64,000 bases of DNA from Beroe forskalii (Eukaryota > Ctenophora > Nuda > Beroida > Beroidae). This document shows, piece by piece, positions 11,039 to 52,630 of this stretch (positions are counted from its first letter, which is position 1; every line of letters starts with the position of its first letter). The notes beneath the pieces are model-generated. The model worked only from the letters and a program-made list of their open reading frames with translations, made no database searches and was not told where the DNA came from. The DNA lies in NCBI GenBank assembly GCA_011033025.1, contig WFMF01000021.1:124001-188000 (forward strand), written 5' to 3'. Position numbers and translations under genes: made by a program.

Positions 11039-11359
11039 AAGTTATACACCTACATTCGACTCGATTGAATTGTGCACACCTTGTAACCTTAACGGTTAAT
11101 TTCGCAACTGCAGTTACTACTGTTTTCACCGACTCAACTTTTATTATCGACCAACCTCTGCCACAATGAAAGCAATCCATTTGAAATATCCTCCGTTATT
11201 CAAGTTATGCCCATTCTCCATCTTTAGATCTTGAATTTGAAGTTAGATTAGATAACTCAATAACAATCATAATATGAAAATGACTCAATTGAAAACTCTC
11301 AACAACAAATTATGAGGGGTTATAAGGCAACTTCCACATCCAAAACTAGTAATCAGTTT
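11039..11359. other. Unassigned spacer
   Basis: Between the truncated 5' end of LINE copy 1 and the next degenerate ORF nothing is recognised. The short minus-strand frame here exists only as an accidental N-terminal extension of the LINE frame. Confidence 0.5.
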
Positions 11360-14876: not shown

Positions 14877-14886
14877 CGTTGATACT

Positions 14887-15710
14887 AAAAGGTGGAACCA
14901 CCCGAAACCACCCGATACCACCCGAAACCACCCAACCCACCCGAAACCACCCCCGAAACCACCCAACATAACTCCGAAACCACCCGAAACCACCCGAAAC
15001 CACCTGAAACCACCCGAAACCATCCGAAACCACCCAACCACCCGAAACCACCCAACCCACCCAACCCAGTCAACGGTGGGTTGGGTGGTTTCGGATGGTT
15101 TCGGGTGGTTTCGGGTGGTTTCGGTTCACTCACATTTAAGTTAAATTTTGGGTCGTTTCGGGCTGGTTTCGGGCTGGTTTCGGGATGGTTTCGAAATTTT
15201 TGCATAAATTGGGGAACTTAAAACACCGAAACCACCCGAAACCACCCAAAACCACCCGAAACCACCCAAAACCACCCGAAACCACCCAAAACCACCCGAA
15301 ACCACCCAAAACCACCCAAAATTCATATTTTGGGTTGGTTCGGTGGGTTGGGTCGTTTCGGGTAGTTCCAAACAAAGGTAAAATTTTGGCTCGTTTCAAA
15401 ATTTTTGCATAAATTGGGGAATTCTAACCACCAAAATGACCCAAAACGACCCAACCCACCTGAAACTATCCAAAATCCATATTCTGGGTGGGTTCGGGTG
15501 GTTTTGGGTAGATCAAATTTAAGTAAAATTTTGGTTCGTTTTACGCTAGTTTCGAAATTTTTTGCGTAAATTGGGGTATTCAAACCACCTGAAACCAGGC
15601 GATTCCGCACAAAATATGAATTATGCACTTTGTGCTGTTTCGTATGGTTTCGAAACAGCCCGAAACAACCCAAAACAACCCACAACAATCCGAAACCACC
15701 CAAACGATGA
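14887..15710 (+). repeat. (CCACCCGAAA)n minisatellite, left arm of copy A
   Basis: Long runs of the 10-bp unit CCACCCGAAA and the variant CCACCCAACC on the plus strand switch at about 15072 to the complementary GGTTTCGGGT strand and back at about 15225, making nested inverted repeats inside one arm. The array opens all reading frames, giving repetitive proteins rich in W-F-R-V-V-S-G-G or P-E-T-T-R-N-H-P that are artefacts of the repeat. Confidence 0.9.
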
Positions 15711-16118
15711 ATTTCGGGTTATGGTGGACTGACGGTTTCTAAACTGGCAATTGTGATCATATCAATCATTCTCCTCCGATATGTACATTTTGATACTCTG
15801 TCGATTTTACGTTAACTTAGTGTGTAGGTACCATTACTCCAATCTCCATTATATGATGTATAGCTCTGTTACCAAATAAAATGAGGAAATTTGGTAACTT
15901 TCCGAAATTTAATGATCACATGCAATGATGAATCATGAACTGATCATGTGCCACGTGCAATGTGCATGGATTACTTTTACGAGCACAATTGCATGGAAGT
16001 AGTGGCATAAAGCTCTACAAATTCTCAAATATTACGTAGTCATAGACCAGAGATTGTGAGACATCTGAAATGCGAAATTTATATCAACGGCCGTGCTGAA
16101 ATTCAGCTTTCTGTACTG

Positions 16119-16680
16119 TTGCTATGGAAACTCGTGTGCTTGCAATGAAAGCCATGGCAATCTGAAAATCTCAGAATTCAGCGTTGACTTGTTATGATCA
16201 CTGAAAACTTTCACAGAATCGAAATATCTATCCTGTATGATGAGTAATCAAAACATAAAATGTGGTCTTGATCTAAATGTCAGCATGGGACTTCCTAGTT
16301 TTCAAAAGGCCCCTGTAGAAAAATCACTAAGATTTTCTCAAAAATTTGAACATAGAAAGGAAGTGAAAATTTAGTTCATTTAGAAAGAAATTTCTGAGAA
16401 TCACCTTTTGTTAACAATGAATAAAACATGATTTTAGTTGTAATAGCAAAATATGAAAAGTAGGGCTTTGGTGAAAATTTGTTTATGTAAATCTAGAAAA
16501 AAATCTTCAAAAATTTTAGGTCGGTTGTTAGGTGGGAACTCGTGTGGTTGCTAGGGACGTCCCAGCAACCTGAAAATCTCAGAATCCGCCATTCTTTGGT
16601 TATATTGAAAGAAACTTTTTACAGAATCGAAATATCTTATGTATTTTTCGAATGATCAAAAAAAATAAAGGGCCAAGACT
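16119..16680. repeat. ~400-bp direct duplication in the cargo of copy A
   Basis: Two related units start at about 16128 and 16540. Both contain GGAACTCGTGTG- or GAAACTCGTGTG-type words, CTGAAAATCTCAGAAT and ACAGAATCGAAATATCT in the same order. This stretch has no counterpart in copy B, so it belongs to the variable interior. No protein family is recognised. Confidence 0.6.
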
Positions 16681-17284
16681 TTTGGCGCACCCTGTACATT
16701 TACAAAGAAAGAAAGAACCCGGGCAATATCAAATACGTATGAATACTGAATGCGCACATCGCCATTTTGTGACAGCCATTCGTAGGCAAGGGCGCGCGCG
16801 GGCATGCCCAAATGTTATGTACAAATTCGGATCATTTATTGAAAATTACGTTTGAGAGTGTTTGGTTTCGTATTGTCATCGTGTTTATTCTAAACTTTCA
16901 TTATTATTACATGTTCCAATTTTCTTATACTTCTATTAATTATGTTTCTTTTTCTGCCCTGATTATACAGAAACCATTCCGTGGTCACACATTTGAGTAA
17001 ACTTTTTGGATTCTGAAAGCTCTGAAACCATCCTAACCCACCCGAAACCACTGAAGTAACGGAGTCCACCCATTCAACCCGACAACCCATCCGATAGTCT
17101 AAAGATAGCTATCATGAACTACATTCATATTTATTGCGTACCATCTCACGCCTCTTTTTTAAATTTTGCTCTCCGAAACTTCTCTTTTGCCCTGTTTATG
17201 GCCCAATTTGCCATCCTTTTTCAGGCCTCAAGATATATACCTATCAAAAACGACCATTTGGGATCCCTCGTGAAAATAATTTTA

Positions 17285-17794
17285 GGGAGCTGTCACATAC
17301 TACGTCATCACTATACGGGGGGAGGGGTTTTTCAAATGCTTACAGGTAAGGGCGGGGGGAGGGAGGGGGTTTGGGGTTTGTTGACGTCAGCAAAATTTTA
17401 AATTTTTGAAATCCTTAGGGTAGTAGGGTACGATTTCCAAAGTTTTTCGGAGTACCTATTTCATTTCTGCAATATGACTATATTTCCAACTAACTGGACA
17501 CGTGACAGGCCATATTTTATGATTAAATGAGGTTCCTCTATAGCAATAAGAAGCAAATTTTGCTTGTTTTAAACGAATTTAACAATATGAATCACACCAC
17601 ACGTTTAAGACTGATATTTTATGTCTGTTGTTTCGATTCGAAATAACCAAATGTTGTTTTGAAAAAGGAGGGGTTTTGGCCACAGCTGACGTAAGCATGG
17701 GGGAGGGGTCAGCCAATGATGACATATGCTGACAGACGGAGGGGAGGGGGTTACAAATGGGGGAAAAAGGGTGACGTAATGTGTGGCGGCTCCC
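17285..17794. mobile_element. PIF/Harbinger-like MITE with G-rich interior
   Basis: The terminal inverted repeats are GGGAGCTGTCACATACTACG on the left and the complement of GGGAGCCGCCACACATTACG on the right, flanked by TTA at 17282-17284 and 17795-17797. A TTA target duplication with GGG-starting ends fits PIF/Harbinger. The 510-bp body has no ORF of note and contains two G-rich stretches (about 17320-17375 and 17700-17765) on the same strand. It lies inside copy A. Confidence 0.75.
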
Positions 17795-17879
17795 TTATCT
17801 AAGCTAAGTATCAACCACTATCTTGAAGTCCAAAAATTTCCCTCGCTCCAACCGGATTTCAGGGGTCATGAGCTACCCC

Positions 17880-18708
17880 TGATCCGAAACCACCCAACCC
17901 AACCGAACCCACCCAACCCACCCGAAACCACCCAACCCACCCGAAACCACCACCTGACACGCCCAAACATGTCTTCAGAGCGGTTTTGGATAGCTTCAAG
18001 TGGGTTGGGTGGTTTGGGTCAGTTTGGTGGTTTGGATGGTTTCGGGTTCAGGTGGGTCGGATGGTTTCGGGTTCAGGTGGGGTCGGATGGGTTGGGTGGT
18101 TTCACAGGTGGGTTGGGTGTTTTCGGGTCCGGTTGGGTGGTTTCGGGTGGGTTGGGTGGTTTCGGTGGGTTGGGTGGTTTCGGTGGGTTGGGTGGTTTCG
18201 GGTGAGTTGGGTGGTTTCGGCAGATTGGGTGGTTTTGGGTGGGTTGGGTGGTTTCGGTGGTTGGGTGGTTTCGGGTGGGTTTGGTGGTTTCGGTAGATTG
18301 GGTGGTTTCGGGTGGGTTGGGTGGTTTCGGGTGGGTTGGGTGGTTTCGGTAGATTGGGTGGTTTCAGGTGGTTTCGGGTGGTTTCGGGTCGTTCCACCTT
18401 TTAGGTAGTACCACCTTTTAGCTCGTTTCGGGCTGGGTTCGGGCTGGGTTCGGGCTGGGTTCGTATTTTTCACAAAATATTTTAGTAAAAACAATGTTTT
18501 TGGGTGGTTTCGGGTGGTTTCGGGTGGTTTCGGGTGGGTTGGCTGGTTTCGGGTGGGTTGGCTGGTTTCGGGTGAGTTGGGTGGTTTCGCCTGGTTTCAG
18601 GTGGTTTCGGGTGGTTTCGGAGCTTTATTGGGTGGTTTCGGGGGTGGTTTCGGGTGGGTTGGGTGGATTCGGGTGGTTTCGGGTGGTTTCGGGTGGTTCC
18701 ACCTTTTA
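17880..18708 (-). repeat. (CCACCCGAAA)n minisatellite, right arm of copy A
   Basis: After a short C-strand block (17883-17955) the array runs as GGTTTCGGGT with a higher-order GGTTGGGT alternation, interrupted at about 18400-18500 by a unique segment also found in copy B, and ends in the transposon terminus. A degenerate internal terminus (CCACCTTTTAG twice, 18388-18421) suggests array growth by duplication of the end. Confidence 0.88.
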
Positions 18709-18714
18709 GTATCA

Positions 18715-20744: not shown

Positions 20745-21368
20745 GAGTGTTTTCAGAGGAGACATTTCACAATGAAGGCATAATTTCAACATGCCAAAGG
20801 TCGTCAAATTCTGGGGGAAAGGAAACACACAGGCTGTTGCTATAGTGCGAACCTGAACAGAATTGACAGATTAGTTTGGTTTTTGAGTACCAACTGGGCA
20901 AGTGGTAGTTGAATTTTGTGCTAAAGTTTTACTTATTTGCTATGTTGAGATTTGCCTTTTTCATTAAAAACTTTCCAGCTGATGCAGTAGTATCTTAGAA
21001 TATGGAGAATTTGTTTAATGGTGCCAATTGGGCTTCTATAAATTGCAAATGGTAAATTAGGTAATAAGCTTTATTTCAAATATAAATCAACAATAAATAA
21101 ATAACTTACATAGATATCAATTTCAGGGAGAACTATGAAAAAACACTTAACGACTCATAGATGGATGAAGCCAATTCCCTCAATACCATTCTTTGTAATA
21201 TATGCAATCATAGTGATAGTCAACTATGGGCATATTTAATAATATGCAGTTGCTGAATGGGGACATTGCATTTGGGATAGTTATTTGGGATATGTTTTTG
21301 CCCCTGATAGAAATCCAGAACCAACAAGCCCAAGCATGGGTCAAATAAGCTGACAAGCTGGTTGGAAA

Positions 21369-22883
21369 TTAAATTTTCTTTATATCAAAATCATGGCTTG
21401 GAAGCCAGTGGAGGTTGTCATGCTTATGCTGGTTATCAAGTAGCATTTTCTTAAGGATTTCTTTGACAGAAGCAATTTTACATGAAAAATCGTCAGATAT
21501 ACCAACTTTTTTTCTAAGCAAATTCCACATAACTGATGATTGATGAATGAATTGGTGGTTTGATGGAGGAGGAATGAGGTTCATGTCATTATGGGTTGAA
21601 ACATTATAGATAGAGTACAGTGAAATTGGGGTTCGAAATTTAAGTATTTTGAGGGATTCCATAAAGCAGTGGAAGGAGTAAAGATTTTGCACTGAGAGGA
21701 TTCCATATCTTTGAAATAGTGGCTTAGTGTGCTCTTTTTCATAAAATTCAGGCCCTAAGCATTGAGTATTTATTGTTCTTGCACGAGCACAAGTTTTGAA
21801 CTTATTCTTGTATGCTTCAAGGTCACCAAATAACACCCTAATGCACTTTTTTTGAATTCTATGTACTTCATTCATTTGATATTGTGGTATGCTGCCCCAA
21901 ACCGATATGCAGTAGGATAAGTGTGATTCAAAAAGTGTGTAGTATAGATCCTTGTGCAGTTCCTCTGGAATACATTTTTTAATTCTAGATATGGTAGATA
22001 TAGTAAAATTTAGCTTCTTTTTAAGCTCTTTTATGTGCGGACTCCAGCACAATTTGTCATCAATTATGACACCTAGAAATTTTGTTGATGTCACTTTCTT
22101 TATCTTACATTCATTTATTTTCAATTCGAGATGATCAGCACAAGGTTTCTTAGCTTTGGGGCAGCTTTTGGGAGTGAAGTGAATGAAGCAGCATTTACCC
22201 ATATTGACATGCAGTTTGTTATGATTCATATATGCGTTAAGTGATTTAAGCAAAGCATTTCCCTTTTGGTAGACCTCTTCTAGGGTTGGGGCATCGACAA
22301 AGATATTTGTGTCATCAGCAAAAAGGATAAAATTCCCATCTTTACTACAATTTATTATGTCATTGATATAGATTATAAATAATAAGGGCCCCAGTACAGA
22401 TCCCTGTGGGACACCAAATATAACAGTGAGTTCTTCGGAGTTTTCGCCAAGAGTGCTGGTGTACTGGAGCCTGTTTGATAGGTAGCTTTCTAGAAGTTTA
22501 TGGGTTGTCCCTCGAACACCATATCTATCAAGTTTGCATAAAAGTTTTCCATGGTCTATTGTATCAAATGCTTTGCTTAAATCAATGAAAATCCCAAGGA
22601 CATGATTCCTTTTCTTCAGGCACTTATTAATATGGTCAACAGAGTAATTGATAGCATGGCTAGTAGAATGGCTTGGTCTAAATCCAAATTGATTCTCATG
22701 CAGCGAATTTTGGGATAAAAGAAAATCATATAACCTAGTATAGATTATTTTTTCAAATATTTTCCCAAAGATTGGTAATGTTGATATTGGTCGATAATTT
22801 TCTATAGATTCTGGATCCTCTTTTTTGTAAACTGGAGTTATTTTACCTACTTTTAGTACCTCTGGGAAAGTTCCAATATTCAT
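21369..22883 (-). CDS. LINE copy 2 reverse transcriptase (ORF2 second part)
   Basis: This 504-residue frame encodes the reverse transcriptase of a CR1-group LINE. Motifs in order are NYRPISTLPIFGKIFEK, LHENQFGFRPSHSTSHA, VLGIFIDLSKAFDTIDH (catalytic Asp of motif A), FGVPQGSVLGPLLFIIYIND, ILFADDTNIFV (Asp pair of motif C), TKFLGVIID and a C-terminal region ending DFDIKKI. The apparent ATG at 22883 is internal: the true protein continues upstream into 22916-24436. The break lies at about 22933, where this copy has four T and copy 1 has five, so one homopolymer base separates it from an intact ORF2. It is otherwise free of lesions and may be a recently active element. Confidence 0.9.
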   Translation of the reverse strand: MNIGTFPEVLKVGKITPVYKKEDPESIENYRPISTLPIFGKIFEKIIYTRLYDFLLSQNSLHENQFGFRPSHSTSHAINYSVDHINKCLKKRNHVLGIFIDLSKAFDTIDHGKLLCKLDRYGVRGTTHKLLESYLSNRLQYTSTLGENSEELTVIFGVPQGSVLGPLLFIIYINDIINCSKDGNFILFADDTNIFVDAPTLEEVYQKGNALLKSLNAYMNHNKLHVNMGKCCFIHFTPKSCPKAKKPCADHLELKINECKIKKVTSTKFLGVIIDDKLCWSPHIKELKKKLNFTISTISRIKKCIPEELHKDLYYTLFESHLSYCISVWGSIPQYQMNEVHRIQKKCIRVLFGDLEAYKNKFKTCARARTINTQCLGPEFYEKEHTKPLFQRYGILSVQNLYSFHCFMESLKILKFRTPISLYSIYNVSTHNDMNLIPPPSNHQFIHQSSVMWNLLRKKVGISDDFSCKIASVKEILKKMLLDNQHKHDNLHWLPSHDFDIKKI

Positions 22884-22915
22884 AAGAACATTGAAATGGT
22901 CAGAAAGAATTGGGC

Positions 22916-24436
22916 TTATGACATGGGAAGCCTTTTGATAATTCTTACAGGTATATCACTGGCCTTGTTATTGTCTAGCTCTGAAATTATACTATTTATT
23001 TCATCTGGTGAGCACTCAAACAATGCCATGGAGCTTTCAACTGGTTTATAGAGGTAATCTTCAAATGAGTTAAATTCACAGTCAGAGAGATCAGAATCAT
23101 TGATACTCTCATTTAATTTTGATGCAATGGAGTTAAAGTACTCATTAAATTTGGTAGCAATTATCCGCCTATCAATGATGCGTTGGTTATCTATAACAAA
23201 GGAGGGTTTGATTTGATTTTTACTCTTACCTCTAAGCTCATTAATTATTTTCCATGTTTTTCGCTTATCTCCAGCACTGTCTGAGATTTGCTTACACCTA
23301 TATGATGACTTAGCAGAATTTATAACATGCTTCAGAGTTCTTCTGTAGGTACTAAAAGTATTATAGAGAATTTGGTCACCATCAGGATTTTCTTTTGAAA
23401 TTGTGGCTTTCCATTTGTCTTTAAGTTCATGTTTTTTATTACAGGCTTCAATTATTCCTTCGGTGATCCAGGGGTTGTTAAGGGGAGTTCGTTTAGTTGT
23501 CTTTGGGACTTTCAGTTTGCAGTGTTTATCAAGTATGGTAGTGAAGGTGTCGGTGAAAATATGGAAATTGTCGGTAGTTGGTATGATCTGGAATTCTTCT
23601 GCAAGATTTTTCACAAAACTGTCAACATTTTTATTGCAAAAATCATAGTATTGCACATGTTTTATCTTGGACTCTTTAATTTTCACTTTGAAGTCAGAAA
23701 GCTGAAAAACAGGCAGGTGGTGAGTCAAGTTGTCACTTATGGTCCCAGATAGGATAACTTTTTCAGTGCTATTTGTAAAAATGTTGTCAATGCAGGACTT
23801 TTTGGTGCCTGGTCTCTCATGCGTGTATGTCGAAATCAAGGGAGAAAAGCCCCCAGAAAGAAAGCAATCCTCAAACTTGCTACAATTTGCATTTGACAAA
23901 AGATTTATGTTAAAGTCTCCCATGACAAAAACATTTGACTTGGGCAAGGTCTCAAAAATTTCATTGATTTGCTCATAGAATTGATCTATGTCACCATCAT
24001 TTGGGCGATATACAACTCCAAATATTAATGGTTCTATGGTTTTGGTGGTTTTTAAAAACAAGGTTTCAATATTGGTGGAACAATCTGAGACATTGTCCAT
24101 GACTGTGCAATTTATTGAATCATGTACATATAGAGACACACCTGTACCTGACTGCTTCTCATCCCGTGTGACTTGGTAATAGCCCTTATATCCAGGTAGG
24201 ATGTAAGTTTCACCACAATTTGGATGTGTGTTTGTTTCAGCAAAGCCTATTGCACAAAATTTATTTTCAATGTTCTTTAGATCAGCTGAAAAAAGATCGA
24301 AATTTGTTGAATTTCCATCAATATTCAAGAATAGAGTTGACAACAGATTTTCATTATGGTCAGCAGTAGCTTTACAATATGTTAATAAGGCATTGTTTAA
24401 GTCCTTGATTGAGTAAGTTCTGCAATTGTTAGTCAA
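22916..24436 (-). CDS. LINE copy 2 APE-type endonuclease (ORF2 first part)
   Basis: The 506-residue frame starts MTNNCRTYSIKDLNNAL and enters the endonuclease at FLNIDGNSTNF. Active-site blocks are FAETNTHPN (catalytic Glu), GVVYRPND, VFVMGDFNINLL (Asp and Asn of GDFN), KKSCIDNIF and NLTHHLPVF. The last replaces the usual Ser-Asp-His of APE-like LINE endonucleases with Thr-His-His. A linker with NNPWITEGI and YRCKQISDSAGDKRKTWKII leads to the RT at LDNNKASDIPVRIIK, where a one-base T-run difference from copy 1 ends the frame. Role: nicks target DNA to prime reverse transcription. Confidence 0.88.
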   Translation of the reverse strand: MTNNCRTYSIKDLNNALLTYCKATADHNENLLSTLFLNIDGNSTNFDLFSADLKNIENKFCAIGFAETNTHPNCGETYILPGYKGYYQVTRDEKQSGTGVSLYVHDSINCTVMDNVSDCSTNIETLFLKTTKTIEPLIFGVVYRPNDGDIDQFYEQINEIFETLPKSNVFVMGDFNINLLSNANCSKFEDCFLSGGFSPLISTYTHERPGTKKSCIDNIFTNSTEKVILSGTISDNLTHHLPVFQLSDFKVKIKESKIKHVQYYDFCNKNVDSFVKNLAEEFQIIPTTDNFHIFTDTFTTILDKHCKLKVPKTTKRTPLNNPWITEGIIEACNKKHELKDKWKATISKENPDGDQILYNTFSTYRRTLKHVINSAKSSYRCKQISDSAGDKRKTWKIINELRGKSKNQIKPSFVIDNQRIIDRRIIATKFNEYFNSIASKLNESINDSDLSDCEFNSFEDYLYKPVESSMALFECSPDEINSIISELDNNKASDIPVRIIKRLPMS

Positions 24437-24591
24437 ATCACAAACCCATAATTAACTAATTTAAACTTAACAACACTACTTATTACAATCAAATTTGAGG
24501 ACCCCAAACTGTTGTTTACCTTGTCACTAAACCCATGGATGCTTTTTTCCAACTAGCTCCAACTCACAAAAGCTAGATTGAATACTGTAAT
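24437..24591. other. Spacer between head-to-head LINEs
   Basis: About 155 bp separates the start of copy 2 ORF2 (minus) from the start of copy 3 ORF1 (plus). It could contain both 5' untranslated regions. No duplicated motif or target duplication was found. Confidence 0.4.
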
Positions 24592-26623
24592 ATGTCAAAA
24601 ACAGATAGTGGCAAAAAACAAGCATCCGGGAGGGGGGCCTCAGATGTGTTTCAGAGTGATAACAAAGAAAAGTCCCATGGCAATGTCAATGTTAATACTT
24701 TGAAAGACCCTCTTATCACTAATGGAAAATGCTGTAGATGCCCCTTCAATGGCAATATTGTTAATGAAGCTATTGCCTGTTCCATATGCCGTAAGTTGTT
24801 TCATGCCCTGTGCAGGGATAAGAAAGGTGGGTTTGCTGCTAATGCTATTTGTTCAAAAACTTTCTTTGAAATGTATGTTCGTTTGGATGCAAATCATAAG
24901 CAAAACATATCCAGGTGGGGACAATTCTTGTTTCTTTTGTCAGAGTTGTGATCTGAATTACCCAGGTTTATTTCCAAGCTCAGATTCAGAAGAATTAGAT
25001 GTTGTTTCCTTTGAAATCTCCTGCTAAGTTTATACCTCTGAAAAGTCTTTGTGTGCTGAGGTACAAACTGTTATATCAGGAAATTTGGAAGGGTATAGTT
25101 CTGAAAGTGAAACCAACCAAGACTATGATTTGAAAACCCTCACTAAACTCAATCATGAAATACTAGATAATATCAAAACTATTGAAAAATTATTCAAGGA
25201 GCAGGCTAACACATTCAACACTGAAATTGGTAAAGTTTTAACTGAGCTGAAATCAAAAGCAATTTGCTGGCTTCTCTAACCCTCCCTGCAGGAAACTAAT
25301 GATATACCATCCAGTTTCAAGTTTGATGCCACCTCTTGTAAACCAGCAAAAGCCTATGAAGAGGGTTTTCTCAACGAAGACCAACACAAACTAGTGTTGG
25401 ACTTCCTAGAGCAGTGTGGTGACTTCCAGACTATCAAATCAGGTAGTAGCAGTAGAGAAGTGGCCTACTATGGTGAGTTCAGGTACCGCTATGGTGCTAT
25501 TCAACATGAAGCTAATCCAGTACCAGTTATTTTACAGTGCATAATTGATCAGATATCATCAAAGTATCCCAAGTCACTTATAAATTCTTGTCTTATCACC
25601 AAGTACAGAAATGGGTCAAATGTTTGTCCAAAGCATAGTGATAATGAAAGTTTTATTGCACCTTGAGTGACATTTTCACTCTTTCTATTGGCTCTGAAAG
25701 ACCCATGAAATTCACTTCATCCTCAGAGGATACCCAATTAATTAATCTAGCAGATAATAGTCTTCTTTCATTCTCTAGAGCCTCTCAGGAGTTTTTGGAA
25801 ACATGAGATCCCTGAATCTAAATGCTCAACCACAAGATACAGCATAACGTTTAGACAGTTAGCACCCTACTACATGAATTCCACTCTCATTGCAGGGACT
25901 CAAAACACAGAATCTTAGGTTTGGGTCTGGTAAAAATACATTTGGGATATGGATGCCAGGTTGCAGGGGTGAAAGCAGGAACTATTGACAGCATACCTGG
26001 ACCTGATATGCTAGAATATCCTTACCATAACCTTGTTATTCACACAGGGATCAATGATATAAGAAACAACAATCATGTTCCAATCTCATTACTTGTAAAG
26101 AGACTTGAGCATAAAATGTCTTGATCTACAGGCCAAATTTCCTGGAATGAGGATTTTTGTTAGCTCCCTTCTTCCAACTAAAGACCCAGGTCTCAATACT
26201 CTTGTCAATGAATTTAATGAAAGAATCAAAGGCTTTGTTAATAGACATTCCAATATGCTTGTAATCTCACACCAAAACCTTGCTAACAGCTCAGGTCTAC
26301 TGACACATGATCTTGGCGCCACTATCAAGATGGTGGTGCCAAAGTCTTTGACACTGTTCATCTTGGATCAAAGGGAATTTCAGTTTTTTGTGCCAACATC
26401 AAGAATAGCATTATCAAAAGGAAGTCTGGCAAGAATTCCGAAGCTTCCCTTCCCAGGTCAAATAGTAGAATTGTTGACAGGAAATCATCTGACACAGGAT
26501 TTCTTTTCTGGAATCCTGACCCTAGATATAAGCCCAGCAACCGCCCTCTTCAAGCCCATCCTTACCCCTTGGACTGGAAATCATAGTGATAGCTTCCCTG
26601 TAGGAGGGTCCTCAAACCTTTAA
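24592..26623 (+). pseudogene. LINE ORF1: PHD finger, coiled coil, AlkB-like dioxygenase, SGNH esterase
   Basis: Read across frames, the product starts MSKTDSGKKQ and contains a C4HC3 PHD-like finger (KCCRC, ACSICRKLFHALC, then FFCQSC after a frameshift at about 24918). An acidic/coiled linker follows (NHEILDNIKTIEKLFKEQ). The next domain (25360-25860) has YYGEFRYRYGAIQHE, NSCLITKYRNGSNVCPKHSD with His 25634-25636 and Asp 25640-25642, then FTLSIGSERPMKF, WKHEIP (His 25802-25804) and RYSITFRQL. This is the HxD..H..RxSxTFR signature of AlkB-type Fe(II)/2-oxoglutarate dioxygenases. Last is an SGNH hydrolase region with HTGINDIR (26041-26064, the GxND block) and DTVHL (26350-26364, the DxxH block). 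At least four frame changes show decay. PHD and esterase domains in CR1 ORF1 are established; the AlkB domain is the unusual part. Confidence 0.8.
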
Positions 26624-26653
26624 CATCAATAATATGAACAATGGCTACCAATC

Positions 26654-29600
26654 ATGAGACTATTAAACGTGAATTATGTGAGCTGCTGTAAACAAATTCT
26701 AATCCATCAAAAATTCTTGGTCTGTTCAAGATGCAACAAAATTTCTCATCACAAATGTGGTAAACATCATTTTGTTTATGATCAAACAATTGACCAATGG
26801 TCTTGCAATGATTGTCTGTATGGAAGGTTGGTCAAATATTCTCCTTTAACTCCATAAGCTATAATAAATACAGCCCTGAGGACCCTGAAGCTTTTGCTGA
26901 GATAGAAAAATCAAAATTTGTCTCAACAACTGTAAACTTATGTCTAACAAACTGATAAATTCTCAAAATTTTGGTTTTGATAGAAAGCCTCTGGCTATTT
27001 TTTCTAATAACATTGATGGTATGTCACAAAATTTGATACCCTTCTAGCAAAACTATCTTTACTGCATAATCAATTTGATATCCTAGCTATTACTGAAACA
27101 AACATAAATGAGACACACAAAATTTATATGCAATTCCTGGATATGCTTCAACTTTCAGCTCAAAATATCCTAACAAACACAAAGGAAGTGGGCTTGGCAT
27201 TTATCTAAATGAAAGCTTTACAGGAAATGTGATCAATGAGCTTACTATAATAAGTCCTGATATTGAAACTCTTTTCATGGATATATCTTACCAGGGTCAA
27301 AACTTCAATTTTGGAGTTGTTTACAGACCCCCAAGTGGAAACCTAAAACATTTTAATCAACAAATAGAAAAGGTACTTAAAGGACGAGTAAAGCGAAATT
27401 TAAGGTATATGAAAAAATTCATATTATGATAGGTATCATAATTAAAAACACTTTAGTCAAAGTCCGATGTTTCTATTCACTTCCTACGCACGCTATAGCT
27501 AAATCAAAGAGCAATTCTAGGCGCAAAATATGAGGCAGTATGGTCCCCAGTATCGAATTACACCTGAGTTCACTATGTAAACACAGTATATATTGCACTG
27601 TTATTGACGGTTTTGATTGATTTATTCACGCCTCGATTATTAATTAGATAGATTTTTTGGTTTCTTTTATTGACTCAGAAAATTGAGAATTCCCCACTAG
27701 ACGAAACAAAACGCTGTTTAACCACTCATATACGATGGATAATTATACCAAAACGCAAGATAAATAACATACAAAGTACATAACATGCAAGGTCGCGTGA
27801 ATAGGAAGGGGACCAAATCTCGACATCAACTGCATGTTATGTATGATAAATATACGGAAAGGAAATATCTCGTCTTGTGGGTGTGGTAGAATCTTCGTTT
27901 TTTAACGATTAGATTAGAGAATTGCCCTAGATTCTGTGTACAACGTCTGAAAACGATATTTGAATAAAATTTCTTCGCTTTACTCGTCCTTTAATGTTCT
28001 ATCGAATAAAGAAATAAACAACCATTCTATTGTATGTGGAGATTTTAACATAAATCTTTTTAAAAATGATTTAAACAAATCTAAATTTGAGAACATATTG
28101 TTTGGTAACTGCTTCCTACCAACAATATCTCTTCCAACCCATGAAAAACCAGGATGTGACTCATCCTGTATTGATAATATTCTTGTCTCTGATGTAAACA
28201 ATGTAGTTGGATCTGGTCTACTAACTGATATTAAAGTATCTCATCACTACCCAACTGTATGCTTCTATGACATAATTGACGCAGATAGTGAGGGGAGTAA
28301 AGATACTACTGATAGTCAACCTTTTTATTATGATTATTGTGAAACACATGTCTTAGAATTTAACTCTAAGCTTTCTCAAAAAGTCTCTGTTGATAATTTT
28401 AGTTCCCATGAAACTGGCTTTGCACAATTCCTTGAATGCATAACTAATACAATGGATGAATGTTTTAAAGTCAGTTCGACAGCTGTAAAAGCTTCAAAAC
28501 GCAACAGGATAGAAAATCCCTGGATAACTAATGGGCTCATTAAGTCGATCAACTTTAAGAATTTCCTGTATGAAAAATGGAAGAAAAGTAAAACTAAGGC
28601 AGTTAAGTTAGGTGATTCCGAGATCTATGAAAAATACAAAAACTACCGAAAGAGATTGCGAACCCTGATTTTATCAGCCAAAAAATATGTTCTATTCAAA
28701 GAAATTTGATAACTGCAAAGGTAATAGTAAAAAAACTTGGGAATTAATCAATCAACTGAGAGGTAAAATTATATCAAAATCTAAGAGCTCTTTCCTTGTA
28801 AATGGAAATCTAATCAAGGACAGAAGAATCATTGCTAATGAGTTTAATAAATATTTTGTATCAGTTGCACAAATCTTGAATGAAGAAGCTTTCAGTTCTG
28901 AAAATCTCCCAGTGTGCCCCATTCCTGACTTTTCAACTTACATGGGAAAGAGGGTAAATGATAGCCTCTACCTTGAACCTTGTTCAGAAGAGGAAATAAA
29001 AAAGATAATAAATGAATTGGAAAATGGTAAAGCTAGTGATATTCCAGTACGAGTCCTGAAGTCTTGCATATCAATTATAACTCCACATTTGACATTGTTT
29101 TTTCAACAAATTTTTAGATACAGGTACATTTCCCAATATCCTAAAAAATTGGCCAAGTTACTCCTGTTTTAAGAAAGATAATAGCCAATTGTTAAAAAAC
29201 TATAGACCCGTCTCAATGCTACCATGCTTTGGAAAGATATTTGAAAAACTGATATACTTCCGTTTGTATAACTTCATTGTTGCAAAAATGTTCTATATGA
29301 AAACCAATATGGCTTTTCGAAGGCACCACTCAACCTCACATGCTGTAAACTACTCAATTGATAAGATAAGTTTAAATATTGAAAATAAAAACCATGTTCT
29401 TGGCATATTCATAGATCTTAGTAAAGCTTTTGATACCATAAGTCATGAGAAACTTCTTGTTAAATTAGAAAACTATGGAATCAGAGGAGCACCACACAGT
29501 TTGCTAAAAAGTTACTTGACAAATAGGCAGCAGCTTACCAACTATGATTCTACGAAATCTGATTTATTGCCTGTCAAATATGGTGTTCACAGGGATCTGT

Positions 29601-29806
29601 GCTGGGGCCACTGCTCTTCATTCTTTATATAAATGATATAATCAATTGTTGTACACTAGGGCATTTTGTTATGTTTGCTGATGACACTAATATATTTGTG
29701 ACTGGATGTTCAGAGGAGGAAGCTTATCGCCGGGCTAACAAGGTTCTTAAGGATGTTCAACTTTATATGTTAAGTAATCAAATGCATATTAATGTTGAGA
29801 AGTGTG
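26654..29806 (+). pseudogene. LINE ORF2: PHD-like finger, APE endonuclease, reverse transcriptase (interrupted)
   Basis: The N-terminus carries a second zinc finger (YVSCCKQ, LVCSRCNKISHHKC, WSCNDCL; 26684-26820). The endonuclease follows: NIDGMSQN, AITETNIN, SGLGIYLN and FGVVYRPPSGN. It stops at EKVL where a TTAA element intrudes and resumes in frame at NVLSNKEI, VCGDFNINL, SCIDNILV and KVSHHYPT (again His in place of the usual Asp of SDH). The RT has ENGKASDIPVRVLK, YRPVSMLPCFGKIFEK, GIFIDLSKAFDTISH, PLLFILYIND and MFADDTNIF (29671-29697). Frames change near 28690, 29170, 29300 and 29600. The C-terminus is lost at 29806. Confidence 0.85.
27381..27990. mobile_element. 610-bp TTAA-target non-autonomous DNA transposon
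   Basis: The ends are AGGACGAGTAAAGCGAA (27381-27397) and its complement at 27974-27990, with small differences further in, flanked by TTAA at 27377-27380 and 27991-27994. Removing the element with one TTAA restores the LINE endonuclease reading frame exactly (EKVL joined to NVLSNKEI), which proves both ends. TTAA targets are used by piggyBac and Kolobok superfamilies. The interior has no transposase. Confidence 0.92.
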
Positions 29807-29810
29807 TATA

Positions 29811-30195
29811 CAGGGTGTTTCAAGACTCGTGTCCATATTTTGAATAGCTACAATTTTCAGACCAAGGGAAAGGGCAGTTTCGTTTTATGTTCAAAATGCT
29901 GTCATTGTATTACAATTTAGGTTAGTAAACTCAGATTTGATCAATACTTCAATAATTTCTCGAACCAAGCCCCCTTTCTTGAGGCCAAGTTTTGCACTCT
30001 TGGTAGCATGTTATCCATGGCTGATTTCACTGTATCGAGACTTAGCTTCCTTACCTACCATATAATGTTATTTTTCAGCAGCCCAGTTGTTCTGGGGATG
30101 GGGTTGGCGTAAACACGCTCTTTAAGGTATCCCACAAGAAAAAGTTGCAAGGATTTAAGTCGGGCTGTCATTTGGCCATGCGAAATCAGTTCTCC
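29811..30195 (-). pseudogene. Mariner-like transposase relic, C-terminal part
   Basis: Minus-strand translation downward from 30185 gives FAWPNDSP, then LKSLQLFLVGYLKERVY, NIPRTTGLL-like sequence and a helical end containing SLDTVKSAMDNMLPRVQNLAS. The WPxxSPDLxxxDFFLWGYLK pattern is the third-Asp region of mariner/IS630 transposases; here stops and frameshifts break it. It joins the segment at 34874-35120 once the 4.7 kb insertion is removed. TA precedes CAGGGTGTTTC at 29811, a plausible mariner terminus. Confidence 0.75.
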
Positions 30196-30204
30196 CGTTG
30201 ATAC

Positions 30205-30822
30205 TAAAAGGTGGAACCACCCGAAACCACCCGAAACCACCCGAAACCACCCAACCCACCCGAAACCACCCCCGAAACCACCCAATATAGCCCCGAAACC
30301 ACCCGAAACCACCCGAAACCACCTGAAACCACCCGAAACCACCCAACCCACCCAACCCACCCGAAACCACCCGAAACCACCCAACCCACCTGAAACCACC
30401 CAAAAACATTGTTTTTACTATAACATTTTGTCAAAAAAAAAATACGAAACCAGCCCGAAACCAGCCCGAAACCAGCTGATATTTAACTAAAATGTGGAAC
30501 GACCCGAAACCACCTGAAACCACCCAACCCACCCCGAAACCACCCAACCCACCAGAAACCACCCAACCCACCCGAAACCACCCAACCCACCCGAAACCAC
30601 CCAACCCACCCGAAACCACCCAACCCACCGAAACCACCTAACCCACCCGAAACCACCCAACCCACCCGAAACCACCCAACCCACCCGAAACCACCCAAAA
30701 CACCCGAAACCACCCAAAACCACCGAATCCACCCGAAACCACCGAACCCACCTGAAACCAGTCAACCTTCCCGGAACCACCCAACCTTCCTAGAACCACC
30801 CAAGCCACCCGAAACCACCCAG
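30205..30822 (+). repeat. (CCACCCGAAA)n minisatellite, left arm of copy B
   Basis: 10-bp units with the variant spacing CCACCCAACC form a long array, split at about 30400-30480 by a unique segment that is also present in copy A's right arm. The complementary strand has repeated GGG runs and could form G-rich structures. Confidence 0.9.
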
Positions 30823-30922
30823 TTTCGACTGTTGATACTACAATAAATTTTTCAATTGGTCTTGATAAGGTTGGAAAATCTGATTATCGTCTAAAAGTGT
30901 AGCACCTCTGTTACAACATTTT

Positions 30923-31085
30923 CGTTGATACTAAAAGGTGGAACCACCCGAAACCACCCAACCCACCCGAAACCACCCAATATAGCCCCGAAACCAACCG
31001 AAACCACCCGAAACCACCTGAAACCACCCAACCCACCGAAACCACCCAACCCACCTGAAACCACCCAACCCACGTGAATCAACCC
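30923..31085 (+). repeat. Second internal terminus plus short minisatellite in copy B
   Basis: A complete extra copy of the terminal sequence CGTTGATACTAAAAGGTGG begins at 30923 and is followed by about 140 bp of the same 10-bp array. Either a nested partial element or a duplicated end inside copy B. Confidence 0.75.
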
Positions 31086-31089
31086 GATA

Positions 31090-32790
31090 CACTGTGAATT
31101 CAAGGAAAGCCCATGGCAAAATTTTCCAATTCGGATGATATAACTGTAGTACAGTATCAGTAGCGTGACTTCCATCCTCCAGCATGTTGCACAGTTGACA
31201 CTGACATGGGCTATTTCACTTCGTGTGTCCACGGCTCTGCTCAAATTCAGCATGACCCAATCCATACGTGTATCAATGATATGTATAATACCTGGAGAGC
31301 GAATTTTGCGGCAGATTTTATATTCATGTGACACTGAATAATAGTCTGGGCCAATGAATTGACTGTGATATATCCATTATCCAATACCTATCATTCTCGG
31401 GAGCTTATTTGAGAGATTTACCCTTCTAGAAAGGAAATGTTGAAAGTTTGAGTATAAATCTTCAAAAAGAATTTTAAAACCAACAGAAAGTTCTTGTGGC
31501 AAAATACAACGACTATTCAATGCAAGAGCGAGGTTCGGAGAAATAACAGCATTATTATATTATCACTATTAACATGGGTTGAACACTGAGCTCGACTTAA
31601 AATCGTTAATCAGGAACAAGACGTGTATTGACTTATTGATGACCTGTGGCAGCTTGAGCTACGAAGAACGAGCCCGACGGCCTAGCTCGTTATTGATATG
31701 TATCTTCATAAATCATAGGTCAGAAGCATCAGATTGTAAAATAAGTTGAAAGGGTGAAATGGCTCACGAAAGATCCTCAGTGGCCGGGTAATTGCATATA
31801 TGGTGGTTTTAATCTACAGAGAAATAGGTAGTTCTTGTAAAGAAAATCGTCCACACTGGGGCTGTAGTCTACGGCAAACCAAACGACCATTCAACGTTTG
31901 AGAAGTTTTACTGTAAAAGAGTAAAGTAGCAAAGGTGCTTTGAACTTTTGAAAACCATGCGTGGTAACACTTTTTTGACCCAAAATGTTCTTAAAACAAC
32001 ACTATCACTTATGATGATTGCATCACTTTACTTGAGCCCGAGTGTGCAAATTCTGATTCATTAAAACGTTGAAAATATAATTCACACCGAAACATCTGAC
32101 ATTTGTTTGAAATGATGGAAGATTTTGACGAGGGTAACATCGCGCACAAATAGTAAGTCCCACACGAACAATATGCCCCTGACACTGTCAGTAACAGTAA
32201 CAATTCTTGCGCCTATTTTTAGCGCGCGACGCTCATAACAGCCGGGCAAGTTCAGCGGCAGTTAGGGAAATATCGCGAATGTGTCATTGGTTGCGTAAGA
32301 ATCCTTCATTTCGTTGCATTACAGTACTTTCATTGCTCAGACGGCCCGTGTACTTATATTCACCTTTTTGCATGTAATTCGACAGTACGTTCATCTTGTT
32401 CATCTTATTCACCTTTATGAAAATGTTCAATACTACATTCCAACATTATATTTTGTTGTTAATGTTCCTTGATATATAATCACATGGGCGGTGGGGCTAT
32501 AGAAATCCCCACAATGTACACTTACAGACGTGTATCAAATGTTACTTGTGTATTGTGCAATGATAAGTTATTACAGGCAGCCCTTGAATTGTATGTCGGG
32601 TAATATGGACATTGGACATGGTATCGAGGTTTTGGCAATTAACTAATTAAGAAACAGCGCATGTAATTGTAACAAAATAAAAAACTATACCTAACGAGTG
32701 GACGAGTTTGTGTGTGATATTTCATCTCTTTTGCAAGCCTCTCTTTGATTTTCAGCATGATCCAATAACTTATATCGTACCTACAGCAAG
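31090..32790. other. Variable interior (cargo) of copy B
   Basis: About 1.7 kb with no counterpart in copy A and no recognised protein. A CpG-containing stretch lies at 32200-32290. It may be captured host sequence, since elements sharing ends but differing in interior resemble Pack-MULE-type carriers, but that is inference. Confidence 0.4.
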
Positions 32791-33508
32791 CTGAATTTCA
32801 GCACGGCCGTTGATATAAATTTCGGATTTCAGATGTCTCACAATCTCTGGTCTATGACTACGTAATATTTGAGAATTTGCAGAGCTTTATGCCACTACTT
32901 CCATGCAATTGTGCTCGTAAATGTAATCCATGCACATTGCACGTGGCACAAGATCAGTTCATGATTCATCATTGCATGTGATCATTAAATTTCGGAAAGT
33001 TACCAAATTTCCTCATTTTATTTGGTAACAAAGCTATACATCATATAATGGAGATTGGAGTAATGGTACCTACACACTAAGTTAACGTAAAATCGACAGA
33101 GTATCAAAATGTACATATCGGAGGAGAATGTTTGATATGATCACAATTGCCAGTTTAGAAACCGTCAGTCCACCATAACCCAAAATTCATCGTTTGGGTG
33201 GTTTCGGATTGTTTTGGGTTGTTTCGGGCTGTTTCGAAACCATACGAAACAACACAAAGTGCATAATCCATATTTTGTGTGGTTTCAGGTGGTTTGAATA
33301 CCCCAATTTACGCAAAAAATTTCGAAACTAGCGCAAAACGAACCAAAATTTTACTTAAATTTGAACTACCCGAAACCACCCGAACCCATCCCGAATATGG
33401 ATTTTGGATAGTTTCAGGTGGGTTGGGTCGTTTTGGGTCATTTTGGTGGTTATAATTCCCCAATTTATGCAAAAATTTTGAAACGAGCCAAAATTTTACC
33501 TTTGTTTG

Positions 33509-34370
33509 CCCATCGCCAATAACCACAGCAGACCGGCAGATATCTGCGTGGAAATTTGGGAAAAAAGAGGAAATTTCATAATTTCGGTGGAAATTTTAAG
33601 CGAACGACGGAGCATTATCATATAATAAATTGAGTACAGTATTTTGCTAGGAGGGATTTTTGAATTATGATTACAAAAAATTATTAATCAGGAAAATCAA
33701 TCAGGAAATTATGATTACAGACAGGTAAAACTCTAGTATTGTCTGACTAGTTCTGAAAATTTATTTACCCCTTATGCCGAGGGCAATTAATGAAGTACAA
33801 ACTCATGATAACTGATAAGATTCATGTTATTGAATGAACTTATGCAATTTATCCAGTGTTCAAGCTTCTAGGTTTCTCGTAATTTCGGCCCAAATTACGG
33901 TTAAAGAATCACTATGAGACGCCAATTTCATCTATTTAGAACACCTGGCTTCTGGGGGCTGCCGCCCCCAGACCCCTGCTTATCATTCGAAATTCATTTC
34001 GTTTAAGGCTTCTTGTGTCAGAAACCTTGAAATTTCGGCTAAAATTAGGGTAAGAATCACTATAAGATGAAAATTTCATCTACTCAGAACATCTGGCTTC
34101 TGGGGGCTGCCGCCCCCAGACCCCTGCTTTTCATTCGAAATTCATTTCGTTTTAGATTTCATACGTCAGGCACCTTGAAATTCGGGTAATTTAGGGTTGA
34201 AATCATTATCAGGCGACAATTTCATTTACACAAAACGTCTTACTCGGCTTCTGAAGTGGTATATTAGCACTATAGCAAAAATGTTGCCAACCTTTGCGAG
34301 CGAAGCGAGCGGGCCTCAGAAAGTGTAAAAATTGGTCTGTGTGGAAATTTTAAATTTTTTGGATATGGGT
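33509..34370. mobile_element. 862-bp insertion with 8-bp target duplication, built of three ~137-bp units
   Basis: TTTGTTTG flanks both sides (33501-33508 and 34371-34378). Copy A has the uninterrupted site (CCAAACAAAGG on the other strand), so the ends are certain: CCCATCGCC at the left and GGATATGGG at the right, giving a short CCCAT/ATGGG inverted end. An 8-bp duplication fits hAT-type insertion but the ends are too short to assign. The second half is three tandem units, two of them carrying the perfect hairpin TCTGGGGGC-TGCC-GCCCCCAGA (33951-33972 and 34099-34120). Confidence 0.85.
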
Positions 34371-34379
34371 TTGTTTGGA

Positions 34380-34850
34380 ACTACCCGAAACGACCCAACC
34401 CACCGAAACAACCCAAAATATGAATTTTGGGTGGTTTCGGGTGGTTTCGGGTGGTTTTGGGTGGTTTCGGGTGGTTTCGGGTGGTTTCGGGTGGTTTCGG
34501 GTGGTTTCGGGTGGTTTCGGTGTTTTAAGTTCCCCAATTTATGCTAAAATTTCGAAACCAGCCCGAAACCAGCCCGAAACGACCCAAAATTTTACTTAAA
34601 TGTGGTGACGAAACCACCCGAAACCACCGAAACCACCCAACCCACCGTTGGCTGGGTTGGGTGGGTTAAGGGCTGGTGGTTGGGTGGTTTCGGGTGGTTT
34701 TCGGATGGTTTTGGGTGGTTTCGGATGGTTTCGGGTGGTTTCGGGTGGTTTCGGAGTTATGTTGGGTGGTTTCGGGGGTGGTTTCGGGGGTGGTTTCGGG
34801 TGGGTTGGGTGGTTTCGGGTGGTTTCGGGTGGTTTCGGGTGGTTCCACCT
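34380..34850 (-). repeat. (CCACCCGAAA)n minisatellite, right arm of copy B
   Basis: Plus-strand GGTTTCGGGT units, with a strand switch at about 34610-34650 (the block pairs CCCACCGTTGG with surrounding GGTGGG) and a GGAGTTATGTTGGG interruption shared with copy A's left arm. Confidence 0.9.
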
Positions 34851-34873
34851 TTTAGTATCAACGTCAGTTCTCC

Positions 34874-35580: not shown

Positions 35581-35584
35581 GACC

Positions 35585-36252
35585 CACATTCGCACGTGTT
35601 AATGTGCACGTGACCCACATTTGCACGTGTAAATGCTCACGTGACCCAAATTTGCAGTGTTAATGTGCACGTGACTCACATTTGCACGTGTTTATGTGCA
35701 CGTGACCCACATTTGCACGTGTAAATGCTCACGTGACTCACATGTGCACGTGTTAATGTTCACGTGTCCCACATTAGCACGTGTAAATGTTCACGTGACC
35801 CACATTAGCACGTGTAAATGTTCACGTGATCCACATTTGCACGTGCTAATGTGCACGTGACCCACATTTGCACGTGCTAATGTGCACGTGACCCACATTT
35901 GCACGTGTTAATGTGCACGTGACACACATTTGCACGTGTAAATGATCACGTGACCCACATTTGCACGTGTAAATGATCACGTGACCCACATTTTCACGTG
36001 TTAATGTTCATGTGACCCACATTTGCACGTGTAAATGTTCACGTGACCCACATTTGCACGTGCTAATGTGCACGTGACCCACATTTGCACGTGTAAATGA
36101 TCACGTGACCCACATTTGCACGTGTAAATGATCACGTGACCCACATTTTCACGTGTTAATGTTCATGTGACCCACATTTGCACGTGCTAATGTGCACGTG
36201 ACCCACATTTGCACGTGTTAATGTGCACGTGACCCACATTTGCACGTGTAAA
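35585..36252. repeat. 31-bp satellite with two CACGTG E-boxes per unit
   Basis: About 21 units of 31 bp. Each holds two palindromic CACGTG hexamers, 17 bp and 14 bp apart in alternation, in contexts GCACGTGT and (G/T)CACGTGACC. By hand count about 40 intact CACGTG sites occur in 670 bp. CACGTG is the class B E-box bound by bHLH and bHLH-ZIP factors such as Myc/Max, USF and CLOCK/BMAL1-type proteins. A 31-bp period is close to three helical turns, which would place all sites on one face of the DNA. Confidence 0.92.
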
Positions 36253-36263
36253 TCTCTCTCCAG

Positions 36264-49403: not shown

Positions 49404-49532
49404 GCTGCTGGTGACAGGTCGTAACATTCCCCAGTGGGCATATGACAGCATAGCCTGCACTATGCCAGTAGAGGAGAGCATGGAACTCATTGCTCTCTCA
49501 GGCTCTGTCCCTTCTCTCTACACCCTCTCAAG
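49404..49532 (+). CDS. Ankyrin-repeat gene, exon C (seed of the splice-site satellite)
   Basis: Acceptor CTTGCAG ends at 49403 and donor GTAAGC begins at 49533. The open frame reads LLVTGRNIPQWAYDSIACTM, PVEESMELIALSGSVPSLYT and LSR. The last 59 bp plus the first 9 bp of the intron form the first unit of the 68-bp array that follows. The exon is outside the ankyrin consensus; assignment to the same gene rests on position and strand. Confidence 0.55.
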
Positions 49533-52500: not shown

Positions 52501-52630
52501 TCTCTACACCCTCTCAAGGTAAGCAAAGAGAGCATGGAACTCATTGCTCTCTCAGGCTCTGTACCTTCTCTCTACACCCTCTCAAGGTAAGCAAAGAGAG
52601 CATGGAACTCATTGCTCTCTCAGGCTCTGT
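49474..52630 (+). repeat. 68-bp satellite carrying a splice donor, ~47 units
   Basis: The unit runs from GAGAGCATGGAACTC through ATTGCTCTCTCAGGCTCTG to CACCCTCTCAAGGTAAGCAAA (68 bp; a few units are shortened or rearranged, as at 50530-50600, 51430-51500 and 51790-51840). Each unit contains an AAG/GTAAGC donor identical to that of exon C and a CTCTCTCAG/G acceptor-like word 31 bp before it. Because 68 is not a multiple of three the frame changes every unit, so the roughly 60-residue open frames are artefacts. Homogeneity implies recent expansion. Confidence 0.95.

What the first reader, a model, noticed from the sequence alone, without database searches (positions are those of the whole stretch)
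30196..34863. Minisatellite-ended transposon family with a 10-bp target duplication and variable cargo
Copy B lies in a mariner transposase with exact TCAGTTCTCC duplications, and removing it rejoins the transposase frame. Copy A (14877-18714) has the same two ends and subterminal blocks in inverse orientation but a different interior. Both ends start CGTTGATACTAAAAGGTGG and are mostly a 10-bp minisatellite (CCACCCGAAA). Long arrays inside terminal inverted repeats, with exchangeable interiors, suggest a MULE-like non-autonomous family that spreads minisatellite DNA and carries captured sequence.
Basis: partly seen in the sequence, partly recalled or inferred. Interest (0 to 1): 0.88.

Follow-up and report, generated by a model that had tools for sequence, protein, structure and literature searches.

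The report
Non-autonomous minisatellite-ended DNA transposon family
This is a real, fairly young family of parasitic DNA pieces with long repetitive ends that usually duplicates ten bases of its target when it inserts, and it looks like a new member of a known kind (foldback-type, probably Mutator-like transposons) rather than a new kind of element.

Summary
Copy B (30196-34863) is a genuine insertion: its joined flanks (400 nt) match 17 uninterrupted genomic places over their full length at 92-99%. Genome-wide (216 Mb) the exact 19-bp terminus occurs 147 times. Of 38 fetched inverted pairs, 29 carry an exact 10-bp duplication and one a 9-bp one, against 0 of 1406 mismatched-pair controls. The family is young (median 1.0% from consensus); no transposase gene was recognised in its copies.

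"Exchangeable cargo" is not supported: 13 of 38 copies carry core I, 25 core II, none other, and 6 of 11 extra stretches examined look like later nested insertions. Core II usually has a second, internal right terminus; in 18 of 18 copies with both, the 10-bp duplication is at the outer one.

MULE assignment is probable, not proven. Of 10 end-mapped MULE elements of this genome, 9 have 12-18-bp tandem repeats at their ends, but they duplicate 8-9 bp. No MULE match found lies within 15 kb of an exact terminus. New member of a known kind.

The parts
30186..30195 (+). target site duplication, left copy (TCAGTTCTCC) of copy B
   Evidence: exact match to 34864-34873; joined site with one copy matched full length at 17 places
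30196..34863 (-). copy B, whole element (core II; reverse orientation relative to reference copy L009)
30196..30214 (+). outer right terminus of copy B (19 bp), followed by minisatellite arrays 30215-30821
30822..30922 (.). about 100 bp of unique spacer between outer right module and inner terminus; its first bases next to the inner terminus are the same in 18 of 18 copies that have both termini (one base differs in L015)
   Evidence: boundary towards the arrays approximate
30923..30941 (+). inner right terminus (second exact copy of the 19-bp end), not the boundary of this insertion
30908..32737 (-). core II of copy B; overlaps the inner terminus
   Evidence: aligned to core II of L037 at 95%; approximate coordinates
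32782..33508 (-). inner part of the shared left block of copy B
   Evidence: aligned to L009 left block 445-1172 at 92%
33509..34369 (.). 861-bp nested insertion inside the left block of copy B, flanked by 8-bp duplication CAAACAAA; contains a 148-bp tandem repeat
   Evidence: repeat
34370..34863 (-). outer part of the left end of copy B with minisatellite arrays and terminus
34864..34873 (+). target site duplication, right copy (TCAGTTCTCC) of copy B
14877..18714 (+). copy A (core I); right tip lacks its last 3 bases, no target duplication
16139..17940 (+). core I of copy A with about 209-216 bp extra near 16279-16490
   Evidence: approximate coordinates

Best explanation
Copies A and B belong to a non-autonomous class II (cut-and-paste) transposon family of the foldback type. 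A copy (median 3.7 kb among the 38 fetched pairs) has symmetrical 19-bp tips, long ends made largely of a 10-bp minisatellite in inverted orientation, and one of two fixed cores without a recognised gene. A transposase supplied in trans, most likely of the Mutator-like (MULE) superfamily, recognises the ends and inserts with a 10-bp stagger. Shown: family, ends, 10-bp duplication, empty sites, two cores, and the duplication at the outer terminus in core II copies that have both termini. Inferred: that the transposase is a MULE, and that the minisatellite units serve as arrayed transposase-binding sites. The double-terminus form probably arose when an element acquired an extra outer right-end module plus about 100 bp of spacer and then amplified; this is inferred from the constant junction.
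For: 147 exact termini, reversed-pattern control 0; 444 with up to 3 mismatches against 25 in the control. Exact 10-bp duplication in 29 of 38 pairs, 9-bp in 1 of 38, mismatched-pair control 0 of 1406. Empty sites: 17 full-length matches to copy B's joined flanks; L030's site has an uninterrupted paralog, with its 10-bp word once, inside extra DNA of L011 (77% identity with gaps). Young: median divergence from consensus 1.0% over the shared left block, 35 copies. Two cores, 13 and 25 of 38, none other. Longest open frame in the two reference cores 119 aa. MULE link: 46 PF10551 hits in the genome, 12 loci fetched; 10 yielded both ends, with 8-bp (6) or 9-bp (4) duplications. Tandem Repeats Finder shows 12-18-bp repeats at the ends of 9 of those 10, at both ends in 8, with about 2-7 copies; L060 shows none. 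FLYWCH plus MULE matches in 8 of the 11 transposase frames scanned (one MULE match below its cut-off), MULE alone in 3. Literature passages: MULE duplications of 8-11 bp (PMC6446971); mosquito MULEs with 9-15-bp subterminal tandem repeats and non-autonomous derivatives (PMC5225508); Tm1 (PMC3169594).
Against: No transposase-coding member was found. None of the 46 PF10551 hits (nearest 15.2 kb), nor of 100 listed matches to one full MULE transposase (89 of 682 candidates scored; nearest 15.7 kb), lies near an exact terminus. The 10 end-mapped MULEs duplicate 8-9 bp and have asymmetric tips of about 6-8 bp, whereas this family duplicates 10 bp and has identical tips; their arrays are short (2-7 copies) where this family's reach about 60. 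34 of 46 PF10551 loci were not inspected. 8 of 38 pairs have neither an exact 10-bp nor 9-bp duplication: 5 because an inner terminus stood in for the outer end, 2 with 3 mismatches in 10, 1 (L010) with none. Requiring exact termini selects intact copies, so 29 of 38 overstates the rate for the whole family.
Confidence: 0.75

Rival explanations
1. Same transposon family, but mobilised by a transposase of another superfamily. Foldback-type ends have arisen more than once; Galileo is a P-superfamily element.
For: No MULE match found lies within 15 kb of any exact terminus. Tip symmetry and 10-bp stagger differ from the genome's end-mapped MULEs. Foldback structure is described as convergent (PMC3573991 and PMC4079207 passages).
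Against: 10-bp duplications fall in the 8-11 bp range given for MULEs and differ from the 7 bp mentioned for Galileo. The usual duplication lengths of other superfamilies are recalled, not tested here; no other transposase family was searched in the genome.
Confidence: 0.15
2. Pack-MULE-like carriers: interiors are captured and exchanged host sequence.
For: Copy lengths vary from 2.8 to 9.1 kb and copies A and B differ inside. Heterogeneous interiors are reported for mosquito MULE derivatives. The origin of the two cores and of 5 of 11 extra stretches is unknown.
Against: 38 of 38 fetched copies carry core I or core II. 6 of 11 inspected extra stretches have inverted ends or 8-10-bp flanking duplications of their own. 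No host gene fragment was identified, but interiors were not searched by homology against genes.
Confidence: 0.06
3. The minisatellite arrays have no binding role: they are passive slippage or unequal-exchange products that hitchhike in the ends.
For: Amount and position of minisatellite differ between ends and copies; tandem arrays expand readily (general knowledge).
Against: 9 of 10 end-mapped MULE elements of this genome have short tandem repeats at their ends, with different units in different families. Galileo's repeats contain binding sites for the transposase's THAP domain (PMC3688188, abstract).
Confidence: 0.3
4. Chance or assembly artefact, or a segmental duplication of satellite DNA.
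For: Minisatellite DNA is prone to misassembly (general knowledge).
Against: 29 ten-base duplications of different sequence against 0 of 1406 controls, and uninterrupted empty sites.
Confidence: 0.01

Closest known systems
Muta families of Aedes aegypti and their non-autonomous derivatives (MULE; PMC5225508)
   [quoted passage not shown] here).
   Different: Muta duplications are 8-9 bp; here 10 bp. Muta has identified transposase-encoding members; here none. No sequence comparison with Muta was made.
Tm1 Mutator/Foldback family of root-knot nematodes (Phantom-type MULE; PMC3169594)
   Same: TIRs mostly made of variable numbers of a short tandem unit (about 14 bp), nested other elements, non-autonomous groups (passages read).
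   Different: Tm1 duplications are mostly 9 bp and its tips are asymmetric 7-bp motifs; this family has 10 bp and identical 19-bp tips. The genome's own end-mapped MULEs resemble Tm1 more closely than this family does.
Drosophila Foldback (FB) elements (PMC7642927)
   Same: Inverted ends with blocks of short tandem repeats, variable block number, duplication on insertion (passages read).
   Different: FB has 27-31-bp repeats in the passage read and a 9-bp duplication; here a 10-bp unit and a 10-bp duplication.
Tetris of Drosophila virilis (PMC4079207)
   Same: Non-autonomous foldback element, no transposase found, assigned to Mutator by its 8-10-bp duplications (passages read).
   Different: Tetris has repeats of about 220 bp and only three structurally complete copies; this family has a 10-bp unit and at least 29 copies with exact duplications.
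Rehavkus (PMC6446971, passages with Table 1)
   Same: MULE-related, minisatellite reported before the 3' TIR.
   Different: 9-bp duplication, coding element with PHD finger, minisatellite described before one end only.

Membership tests
Class II TIR transposon (cut-and-paste) | terminal inverted repeats plus fixed-length target duplication with empty sites | tested here: met
   29 of 38 exact 10 bp, control 0 of 1406; empty sites
Foldback-type element | long inverted ends built of internal tandem repeats | tested here: met
   arrays in the ends; colinear inverted part 168-220 bp at 84-91% identity in 8 copies compared
Mutator-like (MULE) | 8-11 bp target duplication | tested here: met
   10 bp in 29 of 38; range as stated in PMC6446971
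Mutator-like (MULE) | autonomous member encoding a MULE DDE transposase between the same ends | tested here: inconclusive
   46 PF10551 hits and 100 listed matches to one MULE transposase, none within 15 kb of an exact terminus; diverged termini and 34 of 46 loci not inspected
Phantom/Tm1-type MULE | asymmetric short terminal motifs outside the inverted repeat | tested here: not met
   the 38 pairs have the same 19 bp at both ends, but they were selected for that, so asymmetric relatives would have been missed
Phantom/Tm1-type MULE | FLYWCH plus MULE transposase | tested here: inconclusive
   no transposase in the family; 8 of 11 transposase frames of other elements in the genome have both
Pack-MULE | captured host gene fragments in the interior | tested here: inconclusive
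   two fixed cores in 38 of 38 and no gene recognised, but interiors were not searched by homology against host genes
Rehavkus | 9-bp duplication | tested here: not met
   10 bp in 29 of 38, 9 bp in 1 of 38
Rehavkus | PHD-finger transposase | not tested
   no transposase-coding member found; PHD finger not searched

The most novel reading that the evidence does not exclude
The family is driven by an undescribed transposase lineage, MULE-like or not, with a strict 10-bp stagger and symmetrical tips, distinct from the 8-9-bp MULEs mapped in the same genome and too diverged for PF10551 to detect. In it, array length and terminus position decide which of two nested ends is cut, as in 18 of 18 double-terminus copies.
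Probability: 0.15. Interest if true: 0.6.

Novelty: new member of a known kind. Interest (0 to 1): 0.38.

Why it matters
It is a clean, young family, in what is probably a ctenophore genome, where minisatellite DNA is spread by transposition at a measurable dose per copy. The same genome holds MULE elements with long open transposase frames and short repeats at their ends that differ between families. That makes one old idea directly testable: that foldback-type repeats are arrayed transposase-binding sites, with each family evolving its own unit. The double-terminus copies offer a natural experiment on end choice.

Tried and rejected
Tried without result: Pfam on several window frames (0 of 5 with a match). 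Search for a transposase frame inside the 16 longest copies (none recognised by eye; the one long frame without repeat bias, 314 aa in L045, lies in extra DNA). Intersection of MULE matches with termini (none within 15 kb). Host identification by a GPCR-like frame and by a retrotransposon frame (no hit named by organism in the lists shown). Only the MULE search gave named relatives, best Bolinopsis microptera 49% and Mnemiopsis leidyi 45%, below better unnamed hits, so 'probably ctenophore' is an inference. Naming the interrupted frame (no match). A match of L011's joined flank to a locus of the same place, running into the element itself, was discarded. A DNA search with part of the left block and core (40 of 242 candidates scored) was used only for orientation.

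Considered and rejected: captured cargo as the main source of interior variation; artefact; Rehavkus membership. Papers: passages were seen of PMC6446971, PMC4079207, PMC3169594, PMC7642927, PMC5225508 and PMC3573991, and abstract and outline of PMC3688188; other papers only in search listings. A search for a ctenophore minisatellite Mutator element in the held library listed 13 papers, none of which by title describes this family. Paper searches made.
Full report
Observation. Copy B runs from 30196 to 34863 with the same 19-bp terminus at both ends and exact 10-bp flanking copies TCAGTTCTCC. Tandem Repeats Finder confirms 10-bp arrays in both ends. Copy A (14877-18714) has the same left end and subterminal block in the opposite orientation, but its right tip lacks the last three bases and its flanks show no duplication. 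The sequence that copy B interrupts is multi-copy: a query of 400 nt made of the two flanks with one duplication copy matches 17 places over its full length at 92-99% (68 matches in all, including partial ones and copy B's own two flanks). These are empty sites. The frame statement is right but weak, and the name 'mariner' was not confirmed by Pfam, NCBIfam or PDB searches.

Family. The window lies in a 216-Mb, 1134-contig eukaryotic assembly. The exact terminus occurs 147 times (71 forward, 76 reverse; 0 for the reversed pattern), and 444 times with up to three mismatches against 25 in the control. Grouping gave 88 sets, 38 of them inverted pairs with neighbouring termini less than 9.6 kb apart; all 38 were fetched. 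Exact 10-bp duplications flank 29 of 38 and a 9-bp one flanks 1; no pair matches at 8, 11 or 12 bp; 1406 mismatched left-right pairings gave 0 at 10 bp. Of the other eight, five were delimited by an inner terminus because no exact outer one followed, two have 3 mismatches in 10, and one (L010) has none. Requiring exact termini selects intact copies. A second empty site was found: L030 sits in a repeat whose uninterrupted copy in extra DNA of L011 has its CAACTTGTAG once (77% identity with gaps). The duplications show no strong motif beyond a mild central T-A bias, not tested statistically; their AT content is 0.64 against 0.62 in the flanks.

Age and interior. Over the non-repetitive part of the left block, 35 copies differ from their consensus by a median of 1.0% (range 0.3-2.6%). 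All 38 copies fall into two groups: 13 with core I and 25 with core II, none with both or neither; copy A has core I and copy B core II. The two reference cores have no frame above 119 aa. Eleven extra stretches in nine copies were examined. Four have inverted ends: 1865 bp in L011, 3984 bp with 557-bp inverted ends in L010, 968 bp in L028, 1130 bp in L031. Two more have longer flanking duplications: the 861-bp insert in copy B (33509-34369, CAAACAAA) and 1314 bp in L036 (10 bp, no inverted ends seen). The other five gave only 4-5-bp matches, which can be chance. The 'variable cargo' is therefore two old cores plus, largely, later nested insertions; capture is not excluded for the five unexplained stretches or for the origin of the cores.

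Ends. Each copy carries 465-1103 bp of minisatellite-like sequence. The strictly colinear inverted part is only 168-220 bp (84-91% identity in 8 copies compared); the rest of the arrays is similar but not colinear. In 18 of 39 copies (the 38 plus copy A) a second right terminus with up to 4 mismatches lies 412-782 bp inside the outer one, in all 18 followed by the same spacer (AAAATGTTGTA...). In all 18 the exact 10-bp duplication is at the outer terminus. The five pairs that the search delimited at the inner terminus have that same spacer outside it and no duplication there. The arrays fit a G-quadruplex pattern 15 times in copy B and 17 in copy A, against means of 0.01 and 0.03 in 200 base shuffles; no function is claimed.

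Which transposase. A genome-wide search for PF10551 gave 46 hits. Twelve loci were fetched (L049-L060). Ten gave both ends: duplications of 8 bp in six and 9 bp in four, with asymmetric tips of about 6-8 bp (ends were picked as the exact 8-11-bp duplications with the best inverted ends). Tandem Repeats Finder shows repeats of 12-18 bp at the ends of nine of the ten, at both ends in eight (in L052 at one), with about 2-7 copies; L060 shows none there. L054 and L056 gave no clear pair of ends. Of eleven transposase frames scanned, eight match FLYWCH plus MULE (in L057 the MULE match is below its cut-off) and three MULE alone. This is the structure described for Tm1 and the mosquito Muta families. 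It makes a MULE origin for the present family likely, since it shares the tandem-repeat design of the ends and 10 bp lies in the reported MULE range. Against it: the family's stagger is 10 and not 8-9, its tips are identical, its arrays are far longer, and none of the 46 hits (nearest 15.2 kb) nor of 100 listed matches to one full MULE transposase (89 of 682 candidates scored; nearest 15.7 kb) lies near an exact terminus. The L049 and L051 transposase searches did not complete.

Mechanism. Shown: insertion with a 10-bp duplication, multiplication of two subfamilies without a recognised gene, duplication at the outer of two termini. Inferred: trans-mobilisation by a MULE transposase and a role of the repeats as arrayed binding sites, by analogy with Galileo, whose repeats contain THAP-binding sites (abstract of PMC3688188). 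Each insertion also seeds minisatellite DNA at a new place; whether these arrays later grow into satellites, as reported for Tetris, was not tested.

Novelty. The kind is known: non-autonomous foldback-type derivatives with short tandem repeats in the ends. New here, as far as the held library shows, are the family itself, its regular 10-bp duplication, identical tips and the double-terminus form. The host is probably a ctenophore, inferred only from the best named relatives of a MULE protein. Overall interest 0.38.

Noticed in passing
L049-L060 (12 MULE loci of G000): MULE elements of this genome, mostly FLYWCH+MULE; 10 end-mapped ones have 8-9-bp duplications and asymmetric tips, 9 of these with 12-18-bp tandem repeats at their ends; several have long open transposase frames.
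   Followed up: partly
window 33509-34369: 861-bp nested insertion in copy B with 8-bp duplication CAAACAAA and an internal 148-bp tandem repeat; the element type was not identified.
   Followed up: partly
G000 contig C294 near 226400-228399: Four same-facing exact termini spaced 681, 662 and 656 bp: a possible tandem array of right-end modules, not fetched.
   Followed up: no
L010:3792-7775: 3984-bp insertion with 557-bp inverted ends (98% identical), a 5-bp duplication and long internal repeats.
   Followed up: no
L036, 1314-bp extra stretch: Flanked by a 10-bp duplication (ATACAGAAAC) like the family's own length, but without inverted ends seen.
   Followed up: no
window 49474-52630: Large 68-bp tandem array (about 34 copies plus a degenerate part).
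   Followed up: no
window 35581-36253: 31-bp tandem array (about 22 copies) about 700 bp beyond copy B.
   Followed up: no
window 4752-11195 and 20018-29632: Several long frames that look like non-LTR retrotransposons; only the 528-aa one at 21369-22955 was searched and has thousands of reverse-transcriptase relatives.
   Followed up: partly
window copies A and B: Minisatellite arrays fit a G-quadruplex pattern 17 and 15 times against shuffled means of 0.03 and 0.01.
   Followed up: partly
L045:2974-3915 (- strand): 314-aa open frame in extra DNA inside a family copy; its sequence looked like an ORF1-type frame to me, not tested.
   Followed up: no
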